Shown here: in pieces, positions 738 to 18,160 of the stretch
Layout of the letters: every line of letters starts with the position of its first letter
Position numbering within the stretch: the first letter of the stretch is position 1
Assembly (NCBI GenBank): GCA_018699735.1
Contig: JABIRP010000127.1
Coordinates: 1 to 32,064, forward strand
DNA from: Rhodospirillaceae bacterium
Lineage (GTDB): Bacteria > Pseudomonadota > Alphaproteobacteria > Thalassobaculales > Thalassobaculaceae
Reading direction: 5' to 3'
Length of the DNA: 32,064 bases
The notes under the pieces: model-generated
Databases searched by the model: none
What the model was told of the DNA's origin: nothing
What the model saw: the letters and a program-made list of their open reading frames with translations, nothing else
Translations under genes and position numbers: made by a program

Positions 738-1925
738 ATGACAGAAAACCAACCAATAATATTTGCCATCGTGGTTGCCGCCGGTCGGGGTGAGCGCGCC
801 GGCGGTGACCTGCCCAAACAATATCGCCAGCTTGGCACTAAAACCATGCTGCGGCGTTCGATCGAGAGCTTTCATTACCACCCGAGCGTGTCGGAGACTA
901 TCGCTGTCATCCATCCGGATCATGAGGCGTTGTTCGCCGAAGCAACCGCAAGCTTGTCGATCGCCGACCCGGTGCACGGTGGCGATGCGCGTCAAGACTC
1001 TGTCCGCCTCGGCTTGGAGGCTGTCGCGGCGCGGGGTGGTGCCGACTACGTACTGATCCACGATGCCGCTCGCCCCTTCGTTCCAGGCGCGGTTGTTGAC
1101 CGGGTCCTCGACGCATTGTTTCAGGGGGCAAAGGCCGCATTGCCGGTGCTGCCGGTGGTCGATACCTTGAAACGGAGCGACGACGGTACGCGGGTTGAAG
1201 AAACGGTTGCTCGGGCTGGACTCTGGCGAGCGCAGACGCCGCAGGGTTTTGACTTTGGTCAGATACTGGGCCTGCATAGGGATTGGGATGGCACTGCTGC
1301 AACCGATGACGCTGCTTTGGCTGAGGAAGCCGGCGTTGATGTGATCACCGTGGTCGGCGACGAGCGTGCTTTTAAAGTGACGACGCCGGAGGATTTCGCC
1401 CGCGCGCATCAGTATCTGGCGACAGGTTATGAGACCAGGGTCGGTAGCGGCTTTGATGTCCATCGGTTCGCAGATGGCGACAGCCTCATGCTCTGTGGCA
1501 TTGAGATCATGCACGAGCATGGGCTGGAGGGGCACTCGGACGCAGATGTCGGGTTGCATGCGCTTACCGACGCGCTGCTCGGCGCGATCGGGGACGGCGA
1601 TATTGGATCGCATTTCCCGCCGAGCGAGCTCCGTTGGCGGGGGGCGCCCTCGGCGATATTTCTGCAGCATGCAGCAAGCCTGCTACGCAATCGCGGCGGA
1701 GAAATTTCCAACCTGGATGTGACCGTGATTTGCCAAGCTCCTAAGATTGGCCCGCACCGGGATGCCATGCGGGCGCGGATCGCTGAGATCTTGTCGATCG
1801 AGCGCGACCGGGTTTCTGTGAAAGCCACAACGACCGAGCGGCTGGGGTTCACTGGCCGTGGTGAGGGTATTGCGGCGCAAGCGAGTGTGCTTGTCCGATT
1901 ACCGAACGAGATGGGGGACGAATGA
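738..1925 (+). CDS. ispDF: Bifunctional IspD/IspF (MEP-pathway cytidylyltransferase and MEcPP synthase)
   Basis: One 395-residue protein joins two non-consecutive enzymes of the methylerythritol phosphate isoprenoid pathway. Residues 1-225 are IspD, which makes CDP-methylerythritol; the nucleotide-binding start reads [18 protein letters not shown], with HDAARPF later. Residues from about 233 are IspF, which cyclises CDP-ME-2-phosphate to MEc[11 protein letters not shown] holds the metal ligands Asp and His, followed by [19 protein letters not shown] and a C-terminal [16 protein letters not shown] block. Fused IspDF is common in alphaproteobacteria. The frame stays open upstream to 315, but the conserved fold begins eight residues after the ATG at 738; an ATG at 723 is the alternative. 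The stop overlaps the pgpA start (ATGA). Confidence 0.95.
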
Positions 1926-2377
1926 TGGGCCTGACAGGCTGGCTCGCCACTTGGTTCGGCTGCGGTTTGTCACCAAAGGCGCCTGGTACGATGGGTTCTC
2001 TTGCCGCCCTGCCCTTCGCCTACGGGATGGTTTGGGCTTGGGGAATGCCTGGCCTACTCATCGCCATCGTGATCATAATCCCGCTCGGTATCTGGGCTTG
2101 TGAGCGCTATGCGCAGTCCTCAGGCGACCCCGATCCGGGATCGGCTGTGATTGACGAGGTCGCTGGGCAATGGATCGCACTGGTGCCGGCCGGATTGGAC
2201 CCGATCCTGTTCGCGGTCGCCTTCGTCAGTTTTCGGCTATTCGATATCTGGAAGCCTGGCCCGATCGGCGTTGCTGATCGAGAACTGAAGGGCGGTCTCG
2301 GTATTATGGTGGACGATCTTTTGGCTGGACTGCCGGCTGCCGCGATCGTTTGGGCTGCCGGGCGTTGGTTGATTTAG
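1922..2377 (+). CDS. pgpA: Phosphatidylglycerophosphatase A
   Basis: This 151-residue inner-membrane protein dephosphorylates phosphatidylglycerophosphate to phosphatidylglycerol. The family signature is present in order: [20 protein letters not shown] at residues 11-30, IDEVAGQW at 77-84, [13 protein letters not shown] at 104-116 and a DD pair at 131-132. Hydrophobic stretches at about 40-60, 85-105 and 133-150 agree with a small multipass protein, and the length is close to the family norm. The start overlaps the ispDF stop by four bases, with a G-rich Shine-Dalgarno inside the end of ispDF, so translation is probably coupled. The cinA-type gene follows after 12 bases. Confidence 0.93.
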
Positions 2378-2389
2378 GACGAGGCACCG

Positions 2390-2884
2390 ATGACGATATT
2401 CCCCCCTGACATCATCACATCCGCGACCGAGTTGCTCGTGCGTTGCCGGGATAGCAGTGTAATGCTGGCGACAGCGGAGAGTTGCACCGGCGGGTTGATT
2501 GCGGCTGCCTTGACGGAGATCGCTGGGTCTTCCGACGTGGTCGATCGGGGTTTCGTCACCTATTCGAACGAGGCCAAATCCGATCTTGTCGGTGTGCGGG
2601 CGGAATTGATTGTGGAGCATGGAGCTGTCAGCGAAGCGGTCGCCCGGGCCATGGCCGAGGGGGCACTCGCCAGATCCCGCGCGTCGCTGAGCGTTGCGGT
2701 TACAGGGGTCGCCGGGCCTGGCGGCGGAACTGTGGAGAAGCCTGTCGGCTTGGTGCATTTCGCCTGTGCCAATACTGGCGCAGAGACCGCCCATCGATCC
2801 AAAATTTTTGCAGGCGACCGAGGCGCCGTCCGCCTCGCCACTCTTCGGCTTGCACTGGCAATGATGCAAAAGGCCGTGGCCTAA
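2390..2884 (+). CDS. pncC: CinA C-terminal-domain protein, probable nicotinamide-nucleotide amidohydrolase
   Basis: At 164 residues this is the stand-alone CinA C-terminal domain. The signature ATAESCTGGLIAAALTEI lies at about residues 27-44, followed by VDRGFVTYSNEAK, GAVSEAVARAMAEGA and the glycine-rich AVTGVAGPGGGTVEKPVGLV. In the PncC/YgaD family this domain deamidates nicotinamide mononucleotide to nicotinate mononucleotide in pyridine-nucleotide salvage, with the Ser of the ESCTGG motif important for catalysis. The N-terminal molybdopterin-binding-like half of full CinA is absent, which is normal for this short form. It is the last gene of the ispDF-pgpA run and converges with the dehydrogenase that ends at 2911. 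Family assignment is firm; in vivo substrate is inferred. Confidence 0.9.
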   Translation: MTIFPPDIITSATELLVRCRDSSVMLATAESCTGGLIAAALTEIAGSSDVVDRGFVTYSNEAKSDLVGVRAELIVEHGAVSEAVARAMAEGALARSRASLSVAVTGVAGPGGGTVEKPVGLVHFACANTGAETAHRSKIFAGDRGAVRLATLRLALAMMQKAVA

Positions 2885-2910
2885 AACGATCTCGCTAAAT
2901 CCGGCCGACC

Positions 2911-3702
2911 TCAGGTCCGCATCGTCAGGCCGCCATCGACCGGCAAACAGTGGCCCGTGATGTAATTCGCCTCGTCTGACGCCAGGAACACAGCGGCCCA
3001 AGCGACATCCCACGCTGTTCCCATCTTGCCGGTTGGAGACATGGCGTCACGTTCGGCCACCATTTGCTCTGCTGTGTCGTATTGACCACTGATGTGCTGA
3101 TAAATGTGTGGCGTGTTCATCAACCCCGGCATGATGACATTGGCCCGCACGCCCTGGCTCGCGTATTCGAGCGCCAAGCCCACCGTGAACTGATTCAATC
3201 CACCCTTCGAGGCGTAATAGGCACTGTACGGATATCCGGTGTTCCGGATTGCGGCGACTGACGAAACGTTGACGATAGCGCCCTTACCCTGCGCCAACAT
3301 TACCGGTAACACATGCTTACAAGTCAGGAACACGCTGGTCAGGTTGACGTCCAACACTCGATGCCAGTCTTCCTCAGAGAGCTCGATCGGACCGCCCATG
3401 GCGCCGATCCCGACGTTGTTGTGCAGGACATCGATACGGCCGTGCCGCGCCGCTATATCGGTGACCAAGCGGGCGGTTTCCGCGGATTTAGTAACGTCCA
3501 GTGTTTGCGCCTCGGCCTGGTTGCCTTCCTGTTTGATGATAGCAACGGTTTCCAGCGCGGCGGCTTCGTTTACGTCCACCGCTATGACCGTCGCCCCTTC
3601 GCGCGCGAAAGCCACTGCCGTCGCCTTGCCGTTGCCCCAACCCTCTCCGATTGAGCCGGCGCCCATCACCATGGCCACCTTGCCCGCCAATCGCTCGCCC
3701 AT
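2911..3702 (-). CDS. Short-chain dehydrogenase/reductase (SDR), substrate unknown
   Basis: A classical SDR of 263 residues and normal length. The Rossmann nucleotide site begins at about residue 13 (MGAGSIGEGWGNG). The usual NNAG motif reads NNVG at 95-98, the structural Asn is N120, and the catalytic Ser-Tyr-Lys set is S148, Y162 and K166 (YYASKGG). PGLMNTP and ITGHCLPVDGG occupy the places usual for the substrate loop and C-terminus. D43 at the end of the second strand suggests NAD(H) rather than NADP(H), by inference. The first glycine motif is slightly expanded compared with TGxxxGxG. A Shine-Dalgarno AGGAA stands eight bases before the ATG. It is a single gene, divergent from the small gene at 3830. 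Confidence 0.88.
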   Translation of the reverse strand: MGERLAGKVAMVMGAGSIGEGWGNGKATAVAFAREGATVIAVDVNEAAALETVAIIKQEGNQAEAQTLDVTKSAETARLVTDIAARHGRIDVLHNNVGIGAMGGPIELSEEDWHRVLDVNLTSVFLTCKHVLPVMLAQGKGAIVNVSSVAAIRNTGYPYSAYYASKGGLNQFTVGLALEYASQGVRANVIMPGLMNTPHIYQHISGQYDTAEQMVAERDAMSPTGKMGTAWDVAWAAVFLASDEANYITGHCLPVDGGLTMRT

Positions 3703-3726
3703 TGGTCAATTCCTTTCGGTGAAACA

Positions 3727-3756
3727 TTGGCAGAACAGTGCGACAAACCCTACAAT
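3727..3756 (+). promoter_or_regulatory. Candidate sigma-70 type promoter for the gene at 3830
   Basis: TTGGCA at 3727-3732 and TACAAT at 3751-3756 are separated by 18 bases, each one mismatch from the -35 and -10 consensus. They lie in the divergent region between the SDR gene and the small gene at 3830, pointing toward the latter. The expected transcript start near 3763 would give a leader of about 65 bases. Found by eye only; no expression evidence. Confidence 0.45.
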
Positions 3757-3829
3757 ATGACAACATCGCGACGCGGGCGCTGTTCGGTGTAAACTCTTCG
3801 GTGACGGGATTGAAAGCGGAGACGGTGCG

Positions 3830-4078
3830 ATGGTGATCGCAAGAAGGTTATTCATGGAAGCAGCAAGGCGTCTGGCGGGCGACCCGCGGGTACAGCGCAA
3901 AGCAGCGGAGTTGGCCGAGAAAGCCTACAGTCACGCGCAGCCGACGCTGTCCAATGCCTCGACCCATGTCAGTGAAAGCATGCGCGAGACCTTGGCCGAG
4001 GTCGATCCGTTGGAGGAACCGGGGCGATTTCTGAAAAATCTCAAATCCCGCATGCTGCCACCGGAAGACGACGAATGA
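3830..4078 (+). CDS. Small hypothetical protein, 82 residues
   Basis: I do not recognise a named family. The 82-residue product is helical and charged, with no membrane segment or signal peptide. It opens with MVIARRLFMEAARRLAGDPR, carries a probable amphipathic helix through about residue 35, and ends in a very acidic tail (PPEDDE). GC content and codon choice match the surrounding core genes, and a plausible promoter lies just upstream. The ATG follows a purine-rich GGAGACGG stretch; the alternative start at the next in-frame Met (residue 9) would lose half of the first helix. It is probably a real gene of unknown function. The hairpin repeat starts four bases after its stop and may end the transcript. 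Confidence 0.6.
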   Translation: MVIARRLFMEAARRLAGDPRVQRKAAELAEKAYSHAQPTLSNASTHVSESMRETLAEVDPLEEPGRFLKNLKSRMLPPEDDE

Positions 4079-4081
4079 CCC

Positions 4082-4160
4082 ATCGTCATTCCTGCAAAGG
4101 CGGGAATCCAGGTGATGTTGAAACTAAGAGCTGGATCCCCGCCTTCGCGAGGATGACGAT
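4082..4160. repeat. Dispersed intergenic inverted repeat (alphaproteobacterial palindromic type)
   Basis: Left arm 4082-4111 and right arm 4131-4160 are inverted copies matching at 25 of 30 positions by hand count, around a 19-base spacer. The core GTCATTCCTGCAAAGGCGGG and its partner are the familiar sequence that reads as WIPAFAGMT when translated by accident, widely scattered in alphaproteobacterial intergenic regions. The transcript would fold into a long hairpin. Only one copy is visible in this window. Confidence 0.8.
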
Positions 4161-4192
4161 CGCGACGAGCCCGACAGACGACAGAGGATTTC

Positions 4193-4993
4193 ATGACTTT
4201 CAAGCTTGGACTTATTGGTGCCGGCGCTATTGGTGCTGACGTAATCGATTTGGTGGCACGCGAACACTCCGGCGAGATCGAGATACCGGCAGTGTTGGTG
4301 CGGCAACCTCGGGAGCCTGACGGCAATGGCCCAAACTTCACCAACGACCCGGAAGCCTTTTTCTCTCACCAGTACGACGCCGTGCTAGAGGGCGCTGGGC
4401 ATTCCGCAATCATTGCTCATGGTGCTCGGGTGTTGAATGCCGGTTCCGATTTGATCGTAACCTCGGTTGGCGCCTTCACCGATCAGGCAGTCTATGATGG
4501 TTGTCTCGAAGCCGCCCAAGCCAATGGCACGCGCATGTTGATCGCGTCAGCCGGGATTGGATCTTTGGATATTTTGTCTGGTGCAGCGGTCGGCGGTCTG
4601 GATGAAGTCGTGATGACGGTGCGCAAGGATCCAAGCGCCTGGTTCGGAACTGTGGCGGAGGGTCAATACGATCTTGCCAATATGACGGAGCCGACGGTGA
4701 TCTTTGAAGGGTCACCCCGCGCGGGCGCGGCGTCATACCCACAAAACGTCAACATATCCGCCGCGGTTTCGCTGGCCGGTGCAGGATTGGACCGCACCAA
4801 GCTTATTATCGTCGCCGATCCGACGATTGATACTCACGTCATCGAAATTGTCGCCAAGGGAGCCTTTGGCCAGTACAGCTTCGTCGAGAATGTCGCCGTC
4901 AGCGAGACCAACCGCAAGACCGGAAAAATCGTTGCTATGGCGGTGATGAAGACCGTACGCAATCTAATCAGCCCGGTGGTTGTGGGTGTTTGA
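4193..4993 (+). CDS. Probable L-aspartate dehydrogenase (NadX-like)
   Basis: The 266-residue protein fits the aspartate dehydrogenase family. It has a Rossmann start LIGAGAIGADV at 7-17, the second-domain motif YPQNVNISAAVSLAG at 182-196, and DPTIDTHVIEI at 209-219 with H215 matching the family's catalytic histidine. The reaction is NAD(P)-dependent oxidation of L-aspartate to iminoaspartate, which can feed NAD synthesis in place of NadB, or the reverse amination. No nadA or nadC is nearby, so a role in NAD synthesis is not supported by context; amino acid catabolism is as likely. The start is 32 bases after the hairpin repeat. GC content is like the core genes, unlike the islet that follows. 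Confidence 0.83.
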   Translation: MTFKLGLIGAGAIGADVIDLVAREHSGEIEIPAVLVRQPREPDGNGPNFTNDPEAFFSHQYDAVLEGAGHSAIIAHGARVLNAGSDLIVTSVGAFTDQAVYDGCLEAAQANGTRMLIASAGIGSLDILSGAAVGGLDEVVMTVRKDPSAWFGTVAEGQYDLANMTEPTVIFEGSPRAGAASYPQNVNISAAVSLAGAGLDRTKLIIVADPTIDTHVIEIVAKGAFGQYSFVENVAVSETNRKTGKIVAMAVMKTVRNLISPVVVGV

Positions 4994-5063
4994 CTAGATT
5001 TTTACCGGCACGGCCGACGCCATCGCTCGGCAGGTGTTAGCCGCCCCGTATTGGATATCGGTG

Positions 5064-6599
5064 ATGCACAAAGAGTTGGATCTAAAATTTTTTAATTTTC
5101 CAGATAAGACAAGCATTATTGATGCAATTGATCGACTGCGATTCAACACGCACGAGCTTCAATTGATTCGTGTAGAAGAGGCGATATTGAGTCCAGCTCG
5201 CCTTCGTAGTGTAAGCGAGGGCGATAATAGCACCTCGTCGCCCGAGCCAGAATTGCGGGGTGGCGTATACAGTCGAAATGGAAGGCTATTGAGAGCGTCC
5301 CTCATGAATCGCGAAATTGATCTAGTCGCCAGCTCGGACGAAGCTGAGATCGACTCAGAATTTTTAAATATCAATAAAATCATTAGCTTAGGGGTATATT
5401 TGGGTTGGTATATGACCCATCATGGGCACTTTTTGACTGAAAGTCTTTCCAGGCTCTGGTGCTTCGAGAAATTTGCGGATAATCCCAACATCAAGTTCAT
5501 ATTCCATTTCTCAGACCGCACTGGCGAAAGAAAGCTGCGGCCTGATCATGCCAAAATCCTTTCTCTACTCGGAATTCCGGAACAATCGGTTGAATTCATA
5601 GAGGATTGGACTTCTGTTGACGCCTTGTTCATACCTGAGCAAGCGCAAGCTCTGAATCATTTCACGCATTCAAATCTAGCACCTGCATTCAATCAAATCG
5701 CTGAAATGGCCTCTAAATCAGCGGCGAATACGCCGGATAAAGTGTACATTTCTCGAAAAAATCTGAATTTTTTCAAGATTCGGCCGTTTAACGAGACCGA
5801 AATCGAAAACCTCATGGTGTCCCATGGCTTCAGTATTCTCTATCCAGAACAAACCGATATAGAAGAGCAAATTCGAACGTTCAAAAATGCTAAAGTGATT
5901 TGCGGATTTTATGGTTCGGGGCTTTATAACGGCTTGTTCAGCGGCACCAACGCACACATCATTGTTTTGACTGGCGATCACTCCAGATTGCCGCCTATGC
6001 ACCACTTTTTAATCTCATACCTGACCAAGTCTCGTCTCACTCTACTCAATTGTCTTGTACCACTCGAATATTGGCGAGGGGTTTGGCTGGATGGTCGGGT
6101 TGTAGATGCATTCTTATGTGCCGAGTTTGAGGGGCTGGCGAACGCTCAAACTCCGTGGACTTGGTGGCCCAATCCGCCAGATGCTGCTAATGATATGGAG
6201 CACCAAATCATGTTTCATCACGCAGTTATTGCTGCTTGTGATGATCGTCCAGAACGCTACCGCCCGCTCCTGCAGCGCTTGGCGCGCTACGCGAAAGACA
6301 CAGAGGCGGCGCTGGACCTTATCGCTGAGGTTTGGCATTTGAGTCGATATGACGCGCGAAGAGCCGAACTTAGCCGACATCTCGTTTCTCTCTCAGCGTG
6401 GGTCCTGGGGATATTTGATTGGGAACAAGCCGGAGATTTTGAACATGCTGTCACGAACAAACTGAAAGCCGTCGACTTGTCTAATTCGAGTGCCACGGCT
6501 TATGCGGATATGTATCGTGCATGCGGGTTTGTGACTGGAATAGATGCGTGGAATTCTCCAGATTCGCAATCAGCAGACTTACATTCGGATGATCATTGA
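5064..6599 (+). CDS. Glycosyltransferase family 61-like protein with C-terminal helical extension
   Basis: The central part resembles GT61 (DUF563) glycosyltransferases. GHFLTESLSRLW at 121-132 is the usual H-F-x-x-E-x-x-x-R-x-W block, VYISRKN at 227-233 is the strand before the donor domain, and a long GF..LYPEQTDIEEQIRTF segment at about 255-273 leads to CGFYGSGLYNGLF at 280-292. Bacterial members often build surface polysaccharide. The usual His in the G-x-H-G-x-G-L motif is Tyr here. Residues from about 390 to 511 are helical and could be a TPR-like extension. A GTG at 5034 would add ten residues; the ATG at 5064 is preferred. Base composition is far more AT-rich than in neighbours (17 of 60 bases G/C at 5341-5400), which suggests transfer. 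Confidence 0.75.
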   Translation: MHKELDLKFFNFPDKTSIIDAIDRLRFNTHELQLIRVEEAILSPARLRSVSEGDNSTSSPEPELRGGVYSRNGRLLRASLMNREIDLVASSDEAEIDSEFLNINKIISLGVYLGWYMTHHGHFLTESLSRLWCFEKFADNPNIKFIFHFSDRTGERKLRPDHAKILSLLGIPEQSVEFIEDWTSVDALFIPEQAQALNHFTHSNLAPAFNQIAEMASKSAANTPDKVYISRKNLNFFKIRPFNETEIENLMVSHGFSILYPEQTDIEEQIRTFKNAKVICGFYGSGLYNGLFSGTNAHIIVLTGDHSRLPPMHHFLISYLTKSRLTLLNCLVPLEYWRGVWLDGRVVDAFLCAEFEGLANAQTPWTWWPNPPDAANDMEHQIMFHHAVIAACDDRPERYRPLLQRLARYAKDTEAALDLIAEVWHLSRYDARRAELSRHLVSLSAWVLGIFDWEQAGDFEHAVTNKLKAVDLSNSSATAYADMYRACGFVTGIDAWNSPDSQSADLHSDDH

Positions 6600-6644
6600 T
6601 GATTTTCTTATCTAAACTAGCGTCGCGGCCACGCAGGTTACCTC

Positions 6645-7307
6645 ATGAGTGAATTAAGAAAGATTTTTGAAGAAAGCATCACTCGTGAATCCATGAAATG
6701 GGAGAATTATTTCGAGATTTATGAACGCCATATCAGACGATTTGTTGGATCGAATCCGACTGTATTGGAAATCGGGGTATATGCTGGCGGATCCTTGCAA
6801 ATGTGGCGTCGATACCTGGGCGACGATGCAATTATAGTTGGAATGGACACAGACCCACGTTGCGCCGAGATGAGGAGCGAAGGGTTCGACATATTCATCG
6901 GCGAACAAGGAAACAAAGATCACTTACAACAAATTATCGATCGCTATGGCAGCTTCGACATCGTCATCGACGATGGAAGTCATAAGACCAGCGATCTAAA
7001 GGCGTCATTCGAGAAGCTATTTCCGCACGTGACCGAAAATGGAGTGTATTTGGTTGAGGACATTCATACAAACTATTGGGCCAAACACGAGGGGGGGTAT
7101 AAAAATCCCGGCACATTTATCGAAATGATGAAAAGCACAGTTGACCATTTGAATGCATTTCACTCAAGAGATCCCAACTCATTTCGCCCAAATTTTCTCA
7201 CGCATACGGTCAATGGGTTACATTTTTACGATAGTGTTGTTGTCCTGGAAAAACGCACTCGTGAAGCCCCATTTCAACAAGTAACCGTGAATACACAGAA
7301 GGAATGA
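6645..7307 (+). CDS. Class I SAM-dependent methyltransferase (CmcI/TcmP-like sugar or macrolide O-methyltransferase type)
   Basis: This 220-residue protein has the SAM-binding first motif LEIGVYAGGS at 41-50 and an acidic second strand GMDTDP at 66-71. The metal-binding signature IDDGSH lies at 108-113, then YLVEDIHTNYW at 135-145. That arrangement is seen in MycE-like and related metal-dependent O-methyltransferases that act on sugars of glycosylated products or cell-surface glycans. It follows the GT61 gene by 45 bases, on the same strand and with the same AT-rich composition, so the two probably arrived and act together, the transferase adding a sugar and this enzyme methylating it. The substrate is unknown. 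An AGG before the ATG is a weak ribosome site. Confidence 0.8.
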   Translation: MSELRKIFEESITRESMKWENYFEIYERHIRRFVGSNPTVLEIGVYAGGSLQMWRRYLGDDAIIVGMDTDPRCAEMRSEGFDIFIGEQGNKDHLQQIIDRYGSFDIVIDDGSHKTSDLKASFEKLFPHVTENGVYLVEDIHTNYWAKHEGGYKNPGTFIEMMKSTVDHLNAFHSRDPNSFRPNFLTHTVNGLHFYDSVVVLEKRTREAPFQQVTVNTQKE

Positions 7308-7320
7308 TGCATTTGACTAT

Positions 7321-7342
7321 TCGTTTGCGGTGTCACAAACGA
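7321..7342. other. Inverted repeat upstream of the persulfide dioxygenase gene, possible operator or terminator stem
   Basis: TCGTTTG at 7321-7327 and CAAACGA at 7336-7342 are a perfect seven-base inverted repeat with an eight-base loop. It lies 14 bases after the methyltransferase stop and 46 bases before the dioxygenase start. No U-run follows, so an operator is as possible as a terminator. A TATAAAT sequence at 7365-7371 could be a -10 element for the downstream gene. Weak evidence. Confidence 0.25.
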
Positions 7343-7387
7343 TTATTGAGTTTACCAAACCACGTATAAATGCGGGGAGTCACCGCC

Positions 7388-8461
7388 ATGCTGATCTTTC
7401 GCCAACTCTTCGATCCACAATCTTCGACTTACACCTACCTACTTGGTGACCCCAAGACGCGGAAAGCTGTTCTCATAGATACTGTCTTTGAACAGGCCCG
7501 CCGGGATCTCGCTTTGATCGAGGAATTGGAGTTGGAGTTGCTGGCTACAATCGAAACCCATGTGCATGCCGATCATGTCACCGGCGCTTGGCTCCTGAAG
7601 CAAGCTGTGGGCTCCAGAATCCTGTTGTCCAAGGCCGGCAATGCGGAAGGGGTAGATACAGCACTTGAGGACGGTGATGCCGTCGATTTTGGCAGCCGGC
7701 ATTTGATCGCGCGGGCCACCCCGGGGCACACGGACAGTTGTATGAGTTTCGTGCTGGATGATCGTTCAATGGCGTTTACCGGCGACACGCTTTTGATTCG
7801 AGGCTGTGGGCGAACCGATTTTCAGCAGGGGGACGCTGGTGAGTTGTACCGTTCCATCCATGAAAAAATCTTCACGCTGCCCGGTGACTGCATGGTCTAT
7901 CCAGGGCATGACTATCGCGGTCTGACATCGACCAGTGTTGACGAGGAGCGCCGTCATAATCCGAGATTGGGTGGAGAGATCCAAGAAGCGGATTTCGTGG
8001 GGTATATGGATAATCTCAACCTGCCGCATCCTAAACAAATCGCAATCGCGGTTCCCGCCAACCTCAAGTGTGGACGGCGTGAGGATGGTATCGCACCAGA
8101 CGAAGCTCCCTCATGGGCGCCGCTGGCCTATACTTTTGCCGGAATTTGGGAAGTCCAGCCGCAATGGGTCGAGGAAAACGCCAACGCGGTCCAAATGATT
8201 GATGTCCGCGAGGCCGACGAGTTCACCGGCCCCTTGGGACATGTCGATGGCTCCAGCCTTATCCCGCTCGGTGAGTTGGAAGCAAACGCGGAGGCCTTAT
8301 CCAAAGACCGTCCAATCGTGGCCATATGTCGTTCGGGCGCGCGATCCGCTCAGGCAACCCTGATGTTGCGCAAAGCCGGGTTCGAAGATATCGCCAATAT
8401 GGCTGGCGGCATGTTGCGTTGGCGCTCGCAACGTCTGCCGGTGGTTGGCGGTCAGGAATAA
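7388..8461 (+). CDS. Persulfide dioxygenase-rhodanese fusion (ETHE1/Blh-type metallo-beta-lactamase fold plus sulfurtransferase)
   Basis: Residues 1-245 are a metallo-beta-lactamase fold of the ETHE1 persulfide dioxygenase class: THVHADH at 57-63, H114 in TPGHTDS, D133 in FTGDTL and H174 in YPGHDY. The mononuclear iron dioxygenase uses His57- and His114-type ligands with the Asp and oxidises glutathione persulfide to sulfite. Residues 265-355 form a rhodanese domain with active Cys314 in CRSGARSAQ. The 357-residue length matches known dioxygenase-rhodanese fusions. The protein probably detoxifies sulfide in the cytoplasm, cycling persulfide and thiosulfate. The ATG at 7388 has GGGGAG eight bases upstream and is preferred over an ATG at 7370. 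The chromate transporter gene follows directly. Confidence 0.9.
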   Translation: MLIFRQLFDPQSSTYTYLLGDPKTRKAVLIDTVFEQARRDLALIEELELELLATIETHVHADHVTGAWLLKQAVGSRILLSKAGNAEGVDTALEDGDAVDFGSRHLIARATPGHTDSCMSFVLDDRSMAFTGDTLLIRGCGRTDFQQGDAGELYRSIHEKIFTLPGDCMVYPGHDYRGLTSTSVDEERRHNPRLGGEIQEADFVGYMDNLNLPHPKQIAIAVPANLKCGRREDGIAPDEAPSWAPLAYTFAGIWEVQPQWVEENANAVQMIDVREADEFTGPLGHVDGSSLIPLGELEANAEALSKDRPIVAICRSGARSAQATLMLRKAGFEDIANMAGGMLRWRSQRLPVVGGQE

Positions 8462-8465
8462 CCCC

Positions 8466-9674
8466 TTGAGCCAAGCTCAACCGTCGGCGGCTCCCGACGG
8501 GCCGATTAGGGTATTCGTAGCTTTCTTGCGCTTAGGTCTGACATCCTTCGGTGGCCCGGTCGCTCATATTGTCTATTTCCGTGAAGCTTTTGTCACCAAA
8601 CGCCAATGGCTCGGAGAAGCGGCCTATGCCGATTTGGTGGCACTTTGCCAATTCCTTCCAGGCCCCGCATCGAGCCAGGTTGGCATAGGCCTGGGCCTCA
8701 TGCGGGCCGGAATTCCAGGGGCATTTGCCGCCTGGCTTGGGTTCACTCTGCCGTCAGTCGTGTTGATGACAGCCTTCGCGTTCGGCGCACCGGCGATGAC
8801 AGGAACATTCGGTTCCGGCTGGCTCGGTGGGCTGATGGCGGCGGTGGTCGCCGTCGTTGGCCAGGCGGTCTGGTTGATGGCGAGGACGCTTTGCCCGGAC
8901 GCACCGCGGCTGGTGCTCGCGGCCGTCGGCGGTGGCGTTGCTCTCTCGATCCCCGGCCCAGCCGGTCAGATGGCAGCGATTGGGTTGGGTGCCTTGGCGG
9001 GGCTTACATTCGGACTTGGCAGTGGGGCTGGCGAGGGTGCACCGGCGCCAGTCTCTGTCTCGCGCCGAACTGGCTTCGCCTGCCTCGTGATTTTCGTGGT
9101 GCTGCTTGCCGGATTGCCGCTCCTCGCCGCCGCCTGGCCAACCGACCTGTTCCGGGTGGTTGACGGTTTCTTTCGCTCAGGCGCATTGGTGTTCGGCGGC
9201 GGCCATGTGATGTTGCCGTTATTGCAAGGCGCCATGGTCGAACCGGGCTGGGTGGCCGCTGACGCCTTCATCGCCGGATATGGCGCCGCACAAGCGGTCC
9301 CAGGACCGCTCTCGAGCTTCGCCGCTTATCTCGGTGCCACCATGACGGCGCCACCCGGCGGTATCACCGGTGCCATCCTAGGGACAGTCGCGATTTTCGC
9401 TCCATCCTTCCTGTTGGTTATCGGCGCCGTGCCGTTCTGGGCCGCCTTGCGGGCACATACTCGCATCTCCCATGCTTTTGCCGGCATCAATGCCGCTGTC
9501 GTCGGCTTGCTGCTGGCGGCACTCTGGAACCCGGTGATCAGCACCGGCATCCGAGATTGGCCTGATGTGGTGTTGGCGGCGTTGGCGCTGGTCGCGTTGC
9601 AGTTCTTGAAATGGCCGAGTTGGGCGGTTGTCGGGCTCGCGGCGCTCGGTGGATGGGGGATCACTCAAATCTAA
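8466..9674 (+). CDS. chrA: Chromate transporter, long two-domain form
   Basis: This is a hydrophobic 402-residue inner-membrane protein made of two homologous halves. The first opens with LRLGLTSFGGPVAHIVYFR and the family motif ALCQFLPGPASSQVGIGLG. The second has FRSGALVFGGGHVMLPLL and GAAQAVPGPLSSFAAYLG. The paired FGGP/PGP motifs are diagnostic of ChrA, which expels chromate and may handle sulfate-like anions. The TTG at 8466 has AGGA eight bases upstream and gives the natural N-terminus. A TTG at 8445, inside the dioxygenase gene, adds seven residues and is less likely. It lies four bases after the dioxygenase stop, so the two genes are probably cotranscribed. Whether its main role is chromate resistance or sulfur oxyanion export cannot be seen. 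Confidence 0.9.
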   Translation: MSQAQPSAAPDGPIRVFVAFLRLGLTSFGGPVAHIVYFREAFVTKRQWLGEAAYADLVALCQFLPGPASSQVGIGLGLMRAGIPGAFAAWLGFTLPSVVLMTAFAFGAPAMTGTFGSGWLGGLMAAVVAVVGQAVWLMARTLCPDAPRLVLAAVGGGVALSIPGPAGQMAAIGLGALAGLTFGLGSGAGEGAPAPVSVSRRTGFACLVIFVVLLAGLPLLAAAWPTDLFRVVDGFFRSGALVFGGGHVMLPLLQGAMVEPGWVAADAFIAGYGAAQAVPGPLSSFAAYLGATMTAPPGGITGAILGTVAIFAPSFLLVIGAVPFWAALRAHTRISHAFAGINAAVVGLLLAALWNPVISTGIRDWPDVVLAALALVALQFLKWPSWAVVGLAALGGWGITQI

Positions 9675-17164: not shown

Positions 17165-18160
17165 ATGATCGTGGTAACCGGCGGCGCCGGCTTCATCGGT
17201 TCGAACCTGGTTGCGGCCCTTTGTGAGCGTGACGCCGAAGCGCGCGTCGACATTGTGGTTTGCGATCATCTTGGCTCTGACGACAAGTGGCGCAATATCG
17301 CCAAGCGCGAGTTGGCGGACGTCGTGCCGCCGGACGAACTCGGCGCTTTCCTGGACGCACATGCGGGAGAGATCGAGGCGATCTTTCATCTCGGCGCCAG
17401 TTCGTCGACTACAGAAACCGATGTCGACTTCATCCTGCGCAACAATTTTCGGCTTTCGCTCGACCTTTGGCAGTGGTGTGCAACCCATGACGCGCGCCTG
17501 ATTTATGCGTCCTCGGCGGCGACCTACGGCGATGGCTCCGATGGTTTCACCGATGACGCGTCGATCGCTGGCCTCTCAAAGTTGGCTCCGCTGAACCCTT
17601 ACGGGTGGAGTAAGCATCTGTTCGATCGTCGGGTCTTGCGCCTGATCGCCGACGGCGCGCCGTCTCCGCGCCAGTGGGCTGGGCTCAAGTTCTTCAATGT
17701 TTACGGCCCAAATGAATATCATAAGGGCGGGCAAAAAAGCGTGGTCTCACAGATCTACCCGCGTGCTGCGGAGGGTTTACCGGCAATCTTGTTTCGCTCG
17801 CACCACCCTGATTACACGGATGGTGGTCAGCTCCGAGATTTCGTCTGGGTGGGCGATTGCGTCGATGTCATGCTTTGGCTGTTGGATAACCCGGGCACCA
17901 ATGGATTGTTCAACCTGGGAACCGGCAAGGCGCGGAGTTTTGCTGATCTCGCGAGCGCTGTTTATGTGGCTCTCGAACGGGAGCCGGTCTTGGAGTTCGT
18001 CGACACACCGGTAGAGATCCGCGACCGTTATCAATATTTCACCCAAGCGCACATGGAAAAGCTTCGCGACGCGGGTTACGACGGCCAGTTTACCAGCCTG
18101 GAAGAAGGTGTCCGTCGCTACGTCCAGGACTTTCTCGAAACTGAAGATCCGTATCGCTGA
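17165..18160 (+). CDS. hldD: ADP-L-glycero-D-manno-heptose 6-epimerase
   Basis: The 331-residue protein is an extended SDR that converts ADP-D-glycero-D-manno-heptose to the L-glycero form for LPS inner core. The nucleotide site GGAGFIG is at 6-12. Motifs IFHLGASSSTTETD, SSAATYG at 116-122 and the catalytic NPYGWSKHLFD with Y146 and K150 follow. FFNVYGPNEYHKGGQKSVV is specific to HldD (formerly RfaD) and separates it from GalE-like epimerases. This implies that the organism makes heptose-containing LPS. No other heptose gene is in the window. Its TGA shares one base with the ATG of lgt, so the two are translationally coupled. Confidence 0.92.
   Translation: MIVVTGGAGFIGSNLVAALCERDAEARVDIVVCDHLGSDDKWRNIAKRELADVVPPDELGAFLDAHAGEIEAIFHLGASSSTTETDVDFILRNNFRLSLDLWQWCATHDARLIYASSAATYGDGSDGFTDDASIAGLSKLAPLNPYGWSKHLFDRRVLRLIADGAPSPRQWAGLKFFNVYGPNEYHKGGQKSVVSQIYPRAAEGLPAILFRSHHPDYTDGGQLRDFVWVGDCVDVMLWLLDNPGTNGLFNLGTGKARSFADLASAVYVALEREPVLEFVDTPVEIRDRYQYFTQAHMEKLRDAGYDGQFTSLEEGVRRYVQDFLETEDPYR

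What the first reader, a model, noticed from the sequence alone, without database searches (positions are those of the whole stretch)
5064..7310. AT-rich two-gene islet: GT61-like glycosyltransferase and sugar-type methyltransferase
By hand count, 5341-5400 has 17 G/C of 60 (28%), and 5761-5820 has 25 of 60 (42%), against 46 of 60 (77%) in chrA at 8881-8940. Both genes share this composition and use AT-rich codons (AAT, TTA, ATA). They sit between ordinary GC-rich genes with no integrase, tRNA or repeat at the borders. The pair probably came by transfer and decorates a surface glycan.
Basis: partly seen in the sequence, partly recalled or inferred. Interest (0 to 1): 0.5.

Follow-up and report, generated by a model that had tools for sequence, protein, structure and literature searches.

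The report
Duplicated sugar-transfer and sugar-methylation gene pair
An AT-rich pair of neighbouring genes, predicted to attach a sugar and to methylate a sugar on some cell-surface molecule, sits in two places in one bacterial genome, which fits the well-known trade in surface-sugar genes among bacteria.

Summary
The AT-rich two-gene islet is real: a change-point search picks 5061-7580 at 46% GC, against 58.0% in 258 kb sampled from the same genome; its genes rank 1st and 3rd lowest in GC of 222 ORFs. Gene 1 is a GT61 glycosyltransferase. Gene 2 is closest, by sequence and fold, to the Mg-dependent macrolide-sugar O-methyltransferases MycE and SpnK, with metal and base residues kept. So the two genes have long stayed together, and one recent transfer is too simple. 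The pair was not found in 35 family members. Low GC is common in both gene families. Most likely: a portable unit that adds and O-methylates a surface sugar. Acceptor and sugar unknown; arrival by transfer plausible, not shown.

The parts
5064..6599 (+). GT61-family glycosyltransferase, 511 aa (alternative GTG start at 5034 gives 521 aa); GT61 core about residues 120-300, plus a C-terminal tail (from about residue 326) matched otherwise only in the second copy among the loci scanned
   Evidence: ORF; Pfam PF04577 3.5e-20; alignment with the second copy; tail
6600..6644 (+). 45-nt gap between the genes (46 nt in the second copy); operon-like spacing
   Evidence: coordinates; sequences
6645..7307 (+). 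MycE/SpnK-like sugar O-methyltransferase, 220 aa, without MycE's N-terminal domain; D110, H113, E138, D139 align with MycE D275, H278, E303, D304
   Evidence: ORF; Pfam PF13578; phmmer MycE 8.7e-28; AF2 model pLDDT 96.3; MycE Z 27.6-27.8; residues
4193..4993 (+). upstream flank: aspartate dehydrogenase (nadX type), ordinary composition; not part of the unit
   Evidence: Pfam PF01958; GC 0.567
7388..8461 (+). downstream flank: metallo-beta-lactamase fold plus rhodanese domain, GC 0.561; not part of the unit
   Evidence: Pfam; GC

Best explanation
A two-gene operon that adds and methylates a sugar. The GT61 enzyme transfers a sugar from a nucleotide-sugar donor to a glycan or protein acceptor; the MycE-type enzyme, with Mg2+ and SAM, methylates a hydroxyl of that sugar (most likely the 2-OH, or the 3-OH beside it), capping or disguising the glycan. 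The pair belongs to the exchangeable, AT-leaning pool of surface-glycan genes, and this genome holds two long-diverged copies of it at unrelated sites. Shown: the gene pair, its composition, the enzyme families, the conserved metal and base residues, the second copy. Inferred: joint action on one glycan, the position methylated, surface location, arrival by transfer.
For: GT61 domain. MycE and SpnK are the best solved matches in sequence (8.7e-28 and 7.2e-27) and in fold (Z 27.6-27.9 against 16.5 for the next entry). D, H, E, D of the MycE site kept; E138, D139 and H113 invariant in 40 of 40 rows, D110 in at least 90%; roles of D275, D304 and H278 from passages of PMC9275233 and PMC10117803. 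Second copy of the pair with the same order and nearly the same spacing; 4-fold sites agree at 26 of 107 (GT) and 20 of 55 (MT), about what chance gives for the GT and a little more for the MT by my estimate. GT61 lies next to this MT in 1 of 80 genomic MT loci (Jiella) and the MT next to GT61 in 1 of 35 GT61 loci (L345). The commonest family among 71 same-strand neighbours of the MT family is glycosyltransferase 2, in 11.
Against: No assay. GT61 adjacency is rare outside this genome (0 of 80 viral, 1 of 80 genomic, 0 of 5 class and 0 of 8 family MT loci), so most MycE-like enzymes work without a GT61. No sugar-nucleotide synthesis, export or acceptor gene in the islet. Tyr208 of the MycE-type site falls in a loop that this protein lacks. 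Most of the 71 neighbours do not match GT2, and some are plainly unrelated (SecA, EutB). The nearest named MT relative, Enhydrobacter, is not low in GC (0.608 against 0.588). No usable GT model (pLDDT 33.9).
Confidence: 0.55

Rival explanations
1. Old lineage gene pair, vertically inherited after an ancient duplication within this bacterial lineage; the AT-richness reflects relaxed or biased composition of glycan genes, not a foreign arrival.
For: The two MT copies are each other's closest kin (SH-aLRT 99 and 100) yet near saturation at 4-fold sites; 10 of 35 other family members hold MT relatives, one of them only a 42-residue fragment, and family sequences branch beside the pair without resolution; low GC is common in both families (30 of 76 MT genes and 13 of 37 GT61 genes more than 5 points under their flanks, against 11.1% of 1400 random segments).
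Against: Compositions of the two copies differ (MT 0.436 against 0.503, GT 0.467 against 0.527), and the window islet is 12.6 points under its flanks; no paired GT61 found in the family.
Confidence: 0.25
2. Two separate acquisitions of the same pair from one AT-rich donor group, the copy on contig C288 first and now partly adjusted to the host.
For: C288 copy intermediate in GC and GC3 (0.50-0.53 and 0.585-0.595); its MT stop is 17 nt from a tRNA-Phe gene, a common insertion place (recalled); no likeness of the intergenic and border sequences by eye.
Against: No donor among the 80 best genomic MT relatives, at most 51% identical; no repeat of the tRNA end. An integrase-family gene lies on C288 about 9 kb away (730-1257, 328-aa frame), near shikimate-pathway genes; I take it for a housekeeping Xer recombinase (not tested).
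Confidence: 0.2
3. The methyltransferase is part of a small-molecule pathway (as MycE and SpnK are), and the GT61 gene is an accidental neighbour.
For: Best solved relatives are macrolide enzymes.
Against: The same two genes stay paired in two unlinked places; no polyketide synthase recognised among the window ORFs read (by eye); GT2 is the commonest neighbour family of its relatives, and the stand-alone Mimivirus R132 is proposed to methylate a fibril sugar (PMC10117803 passages).
Confidence: 0.07
4. Remnant of a phage or other mobile element that brought a surface-changing gene pair.
Against: None of the 80 loci has a GT61 gene nearby; the GT had no match in viral contigs by a scan with two peptide patterns and only partial ones of 25.9-30.0% in 4 phage records; viral rows do not group with the pair; no integrase-family match on this contig.
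Confidence: 0.05

Closest known systems
MycE (mycinamicin) and SpnK (spinosyn) sugar O-methyltransferases
   Same: Sequence (8.7e-28, 7.2e-27), fold (Z 27.6-27.9), positions of the two Mg-binding aspartates, a glutamate and the catalytic histidine of MycE
   Different: MycE has about 160 further N-terminal residues and a loop with Tyr208, both absent here; its known substrate is a macrolide sugar, here unknown
Mimivirus R132, proposed viosamine 2-O-methyltransferase (PMC10117803, passages seen)
   Same: Stand-alone form of 221 aa with MycE catalytic residues, near a glycosyltransferase cluster
   Different: Viral, in a large fibril-glycan cluster; direct similarity to the window protein not computed
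Pseudomonas syringae viosamine island with vioM and vioT (PMC3927599, passages seen)
   Same: A glycosyltransferase and a methyltransferase that cap a surface glycan with an O-methyl sugar
   Different: Seven genes, sugar synthesis included, serving flagellin; VioM and VioT not compared with these proteins
GT61 proteins of bacteria (Pfam PF04577)
   Same: GT61 domain above the gathering score (73.1 against 27 bits)
   Different: 19-25% identical to nine other GT61 proteins aligned; a C-terminal tail not matched in the others scanned
FlmG of Caulobacter (PMC7591256, passages seen)
   Same: Could work like a cytoplasmic protein glycosyltransferase, if the acceptor is a protein
   Different: FlmG has an N-terminal TPR domain and a GT-B-like domain; the window GT has no TPR match. 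It is the third GT61 of this genome (contig C185) that has TPR and a flagellin neighbour

Membership tests
Glycosyltransferase family 61 (PF04577) | Score above the curated Pfam cut-off over the whole domain | tested here: met
   73.1 bits against 27, profile positions 2-137 of 137
Glycosyltransferase family 61 (PF04577) | Transfer of a sugar to an acceptor | not testable with these tools
   needs an assay
MycE/SpnK-type Mg-dependent sugar O-methyltransferase | Closest in sequence and fold to MycE/SpnK, clear of other O-methyltransferases | tested here: met
   Z 27.6-27.9, next entry 16.5
MycE/SpnK-type Mg-dependent sugar O-methyltransferase | Asp275, Asp304 (Mg) and His278 (base); also Glu303 | tested here: met
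   aligned to D110, D139, H113, E138 (chain numbers minus 20, an offset I inferred); roles; a role for Glu303 is recalled only
MycE/SpnK-type Mg-dependent sugar O-methyltransferase | Active-site Tyr208 | tested here: not met
   named in PMC9275233; with the same offset it lies in a 7-residue loop missing from the window protein
MycE/SpnK-type Mg-dependent sugar O-methyltransferase | N-terminal auxiliary domain | tested here: not met
   the window protein aligns to MycE from residue 161 on; so it is a stand-alone relative, not a full MycE
MycE/SpnK-type Mg-dependent sugar O-methyltransferase | Mg- and SAM-dependent methylation of a sugar | not testable with these tools
   needs an assay
Genomic island acquired by horizontal transfer | Deviant composition | tested here: met
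   but common in these gene families
Genomic island acquired by horizontal transfer | Empty site in close relatives | tested here: inconclusive
   right-hand flank genes not near nadX in 13 relatives, left-hand ones only loosely in some; no same-genus genome met
Genomic island acquired by horizontal transfer | Integrase, tRNA or border repeats | tested here: not met
   for the window copy; transposases not searched. The second copy lies beside tRNA-Phe

The most novel reading that the evidence does not exclude
GT61 plus a stand-alone MycE-type methyltransferase is a self-sufficient, portable transfer-and-cap module for surface proteins or glycans, kept in diverged copies so that the cell can show two differently methylated surface sugars, for instance to escape phages; the tail of the GT61 enzyme, seen only in this pair, would choose the acceptor.
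Probability: 0.12. Interest if true: 0.5.

Novelty: new member of a known kind. Interest (0 to 1): 0.3.

Why it matters
Methylated surface sugars are known caps that can change how phages and hosts see a bacterium (general knowledge, not from a call). A compact gene pair, found twice in one genome and put together in at least two other genomes, offers a small and testable system for how such caps move and diversify. It also shows that low GC in glycan genes should not be read as recent transfer without checking paralogues.

Tried and rejected
Recent single transfer as the whole story: set aside because of the diverged second copy. Empty-site test: not possible. Donor search: the best MT relatives are at most 51% identical and spread over many phyla; the GT found none in genome contigs or viral contigs, but each scan rests on two short peptide patterns. 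Phage origin: see rival. Flagellin link: only the third, distant GT61 (contig C185, 28% over part) lies beside a flagellin; nothing ties the window pair to it. tRNA-linked insertion of the C288 copy: tRNA-Phe is beside it, but no repeat of the tRNA end was found. Promoter and terminator scan: no more than chance. GT structure: AF2 with two rows gave pLDDT 33.9 and was not searched further. Literature: brought 9 papers, by title and abstract on plants or plant biomass; two searches listed only papers with no GT61 term in them, so they say little. No bacterial GT61 and MycE-type pair was seen in these listings; subscription papers are not held. Rows dropped: in the neighbour count, 8 of 80 loci without an MT ORF under greedy ORF picking, and 16 more without a same-strand neighbour within 300 nt; in the GC comparison, loci with under 3000 bases of flank (76 of 80 genomic and 75 of 80 viral MT rows kept). 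Family MT places in G012, G023 and G031 (weak or fragment) were not fetched, so GT61 pairing was looked at in 8 loci from 7 of the 10 genomes. The family genomes are partly incomplete (down to 59%).

Full report
OBSERVATION. The GC dip is real. In 500-base windows GC is 44-52% from about 4750 to 7750, against about 56-67% in the neighbouring stretches; two weaker dips to about 52% lie near 11.5-12 kb and 28-30.5 kb. A change-point search over the window picks 5061-7580 (46.1% GC, gain 70; 15 block shuffles reach at most 14). The hand counts are right except that 5761-5820 has 24, not 25, G/C. The window is a whole contig: G000 contig C425, 32,064 bases, in a genome of 4.71 Mb in 431 contigs, 90.8% complete. 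A sample of 257,783 bases has GC 0.580; among 222 greedily chosen ORFs the methyltransferase is lowest in GC (0.436), the glycosyltransferase third (0.467), with GC3 ranks 1 and 2 and codon-adaptation ranks 6 and 5. The sample is 19 stretches, mostly every 30th contig, plus contig C185 and the window; two of the stretches are contig C288, which holds the second copy.

WHAT THE GENES ARE. Gene 1 (5064-6599, or from GTG 5034) matches only Glyco_transf_61 (3.5e-20, residues 131-310 of the longer form). Gene 2 (6645-7307) matches Methyltransf_24 above its cut-off (8.7e-8). Against solved structures, gene 2 finds MycE (8.7e-28) and chain 8ia9, titled SpnK (7.2e-27), then cephalosporin hydroxylase CmcI far behind (1.6e-4). 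An AlphaFold2 model from 40 sequences has mean pLDDT 96.3; aligned to PDB chains it scores Z 27.7 with 3ssn (204 residues, 2.5 A) and 27.9 with 8ia9 (213 residues, 4.0 A), and 16.5 with the next entry, TrmR. In the alignment, D110, H113, E138 and D139 pair with MycE D275, H278, E303 and D304 once the chain numbers are lowered by 20. Passages in PMC9275233 name Tyr208, Asp275, His278 and Asp304 as active site and the two aspartates as Mg ligands; PMC10117803 names H278 as involved in deprotonating the 2-OH. In 40 aligned sequences E138, D139 and H113 are invariant and D110 nearly so. Tyr208 and the N-terminal part of MycE are missing here. The PMC10117803 passages describe a stand-alone viral form of 221 aa with the same residues, proposed to methylate viosamine.

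THE SECOND COPY. The same genome has both genes again on contig C288: GT 53% identical by the search and 52% in my alignment, MT 70% and 69%, same order, 46 nt apart instead of 45, in L004 at 7225-8781 and 6504-7178 on the minus strand. A tRNA-Phe gene lies at 6411-6486, 17 nt beyond the MT stop. On the other side come a LuxR-type regulator, a chemotaxis receptor and a PAS protein; beyond the tRNA a TPR-methyltransferase protein. The border and intergenic sequences of the two sites show no likeness by eye. Four-fold degenerate sites agree at 26 of 107 and 20 of 55, and the NG86 dS is undefined, so divergence is old; the two MTs are each other's nearest kin (SH-aLRT 99 in a tree of 146 rows; 100 in one of 103 rows). 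The C288 copy is less AT-rich (GT 0.527, MT 0.503). The only integrase-family match on C288 is at 730-1257, about 9 kb away; there is none on the window's contig.

RELATIVES. For the GT, 11 of 97 other genomes gave weak partial matches, 22-37% identical; in 398 genomes of the phylum (own included) no listed match outside this genome reached beyond model position 361 of 522. A profile of the tail (from residue 326) matched only the C288 copy, at E up to 0.1, in the loci scanned. For the MT, 26 of 385 genomes of the class, own included, and 11 of 36 of the family, own included, have a match; the best in the family outside this genome is 49%. In the second tree the pair branches near family sequences, Enhydrobacter and two class members without resolution, so neither a donor nor vertical descent is shown. 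Around nadX in 13 relatives, neither the metallo-hydrolase nor chrA was found; an SDR gene at 35-41% lies near it in 6 and a cinA-like gene at 36-41% in 3, too loose to call the same site.

PAIRING. With six-frame profile searches, GT61 lies near the MT in 0 of 80 viral, 1 of 80 genomic and 0 of 5 class loci; the MT lies near GT61 in 1 of 35 GT61 loci; 0 of 8 family MT loci have GT61. The two outside pairs are Jiella endophytica (L326) and G544 (L345), both with MT first and GT61 second, the reverse of the order here; their GTs are 22.6% and 26.2% identical to the window GT over part of its length, their MTs 44.5% and 40.5% to the window MT. Both pairs are lower in GC than their loci. In L345 a 1339-aa multi-domain glycosyltransferase, a sulfotransferase-like gene and an ABC transporter lie nearby. 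The rare but repeated meeting of the two families, in different orders, hints at function together rather than one inherited block.

COMPOSITION AS EVIDENCE. Genomic MT genes lie on average 4.3 points under their flanks (30 of 76 by more than 5, 7 of 76 by more than 10); viral ones 2.2 points (19 of 75 by more than 5, none by more than 10); GT61 genes 4.4 points (13 of 37 and 6 of 37). Random 600-nt segments of the genomic MT loci do so in 11.1% and 1.4% of 1400 draws. The GT61 loci were picked as hits to this protein, not at random, and exceptions exist: the Enhydrobacter MT is 2 points above its flanks and one family MT (L384) 4.5 points above. The window islet, 12.6 points under, is at the far end of a common habit. 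This supports membership in a much-exchanged pool and weakens composition as a clock.

MECHANISM. Inferred: the GT61 enzyme adds a sugar, the MycE-type enzyme methylates it at O-2 or O-3. Neighbours of the MT family lean to a glycan role: of 71 same-strand neighbours from 56 of 80 loci, 11 match GT2, and a few match GT1, polysaccharide biosynthesis and nucleotidyl-transferase models; others are unrelated. A design with known chemistry is the viosamine island, where vioM deletion left the flagellin glycans one methyl short (PMC3927599 passages). What carries the sugar here is unknown.

VERDICT. A good observation, correctly read in outline. It is best filed as an ordinary kind of surface-sugar islet with one uncommon trait, a two-gene pairing held twice in a genome.

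Noticed in passing
L005 (G000 contig C185) 1558-3342 and 3925-4776: A TPR plus GT61 protein of 594 aa stands just upstream of a flagellin gene, an arrangement like the TPR-GT flagellin glycosyltransferase FlmG but with a GT61 domain.
   Followed up: partly
L252 (G000 contig C430) 6715-9892: Another low-GC patch of the same genome: a carbamoyltransferase and a glycosyltransferase-like gene, convergent.
   Followed up: partly
L025-L104 (IMG/VR contigs): Relatives of the MycE-type methyltransferase are common in viral contigs (80 kept of 98 candidate stretches), without GT61 nearby.
   Followed up: partly
   Followed up: no
L382 (G002) 1878-6265 and L385 (G034) 7408-8977: Two family members carry two methyltransferase relatives close together, unpaired with GT61.
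   Followed up: partly
L004 4370-6373: A TPR plus class I methyltransferase protein on the far side of the tRNA beside the second copy of the pair.
   Followed up: no
window 17165-18160: An epimerase that looks like the LPS-core heptose epimerase HldD (named by eye, not tested), 10 kb from the islet.
   Followed up: no
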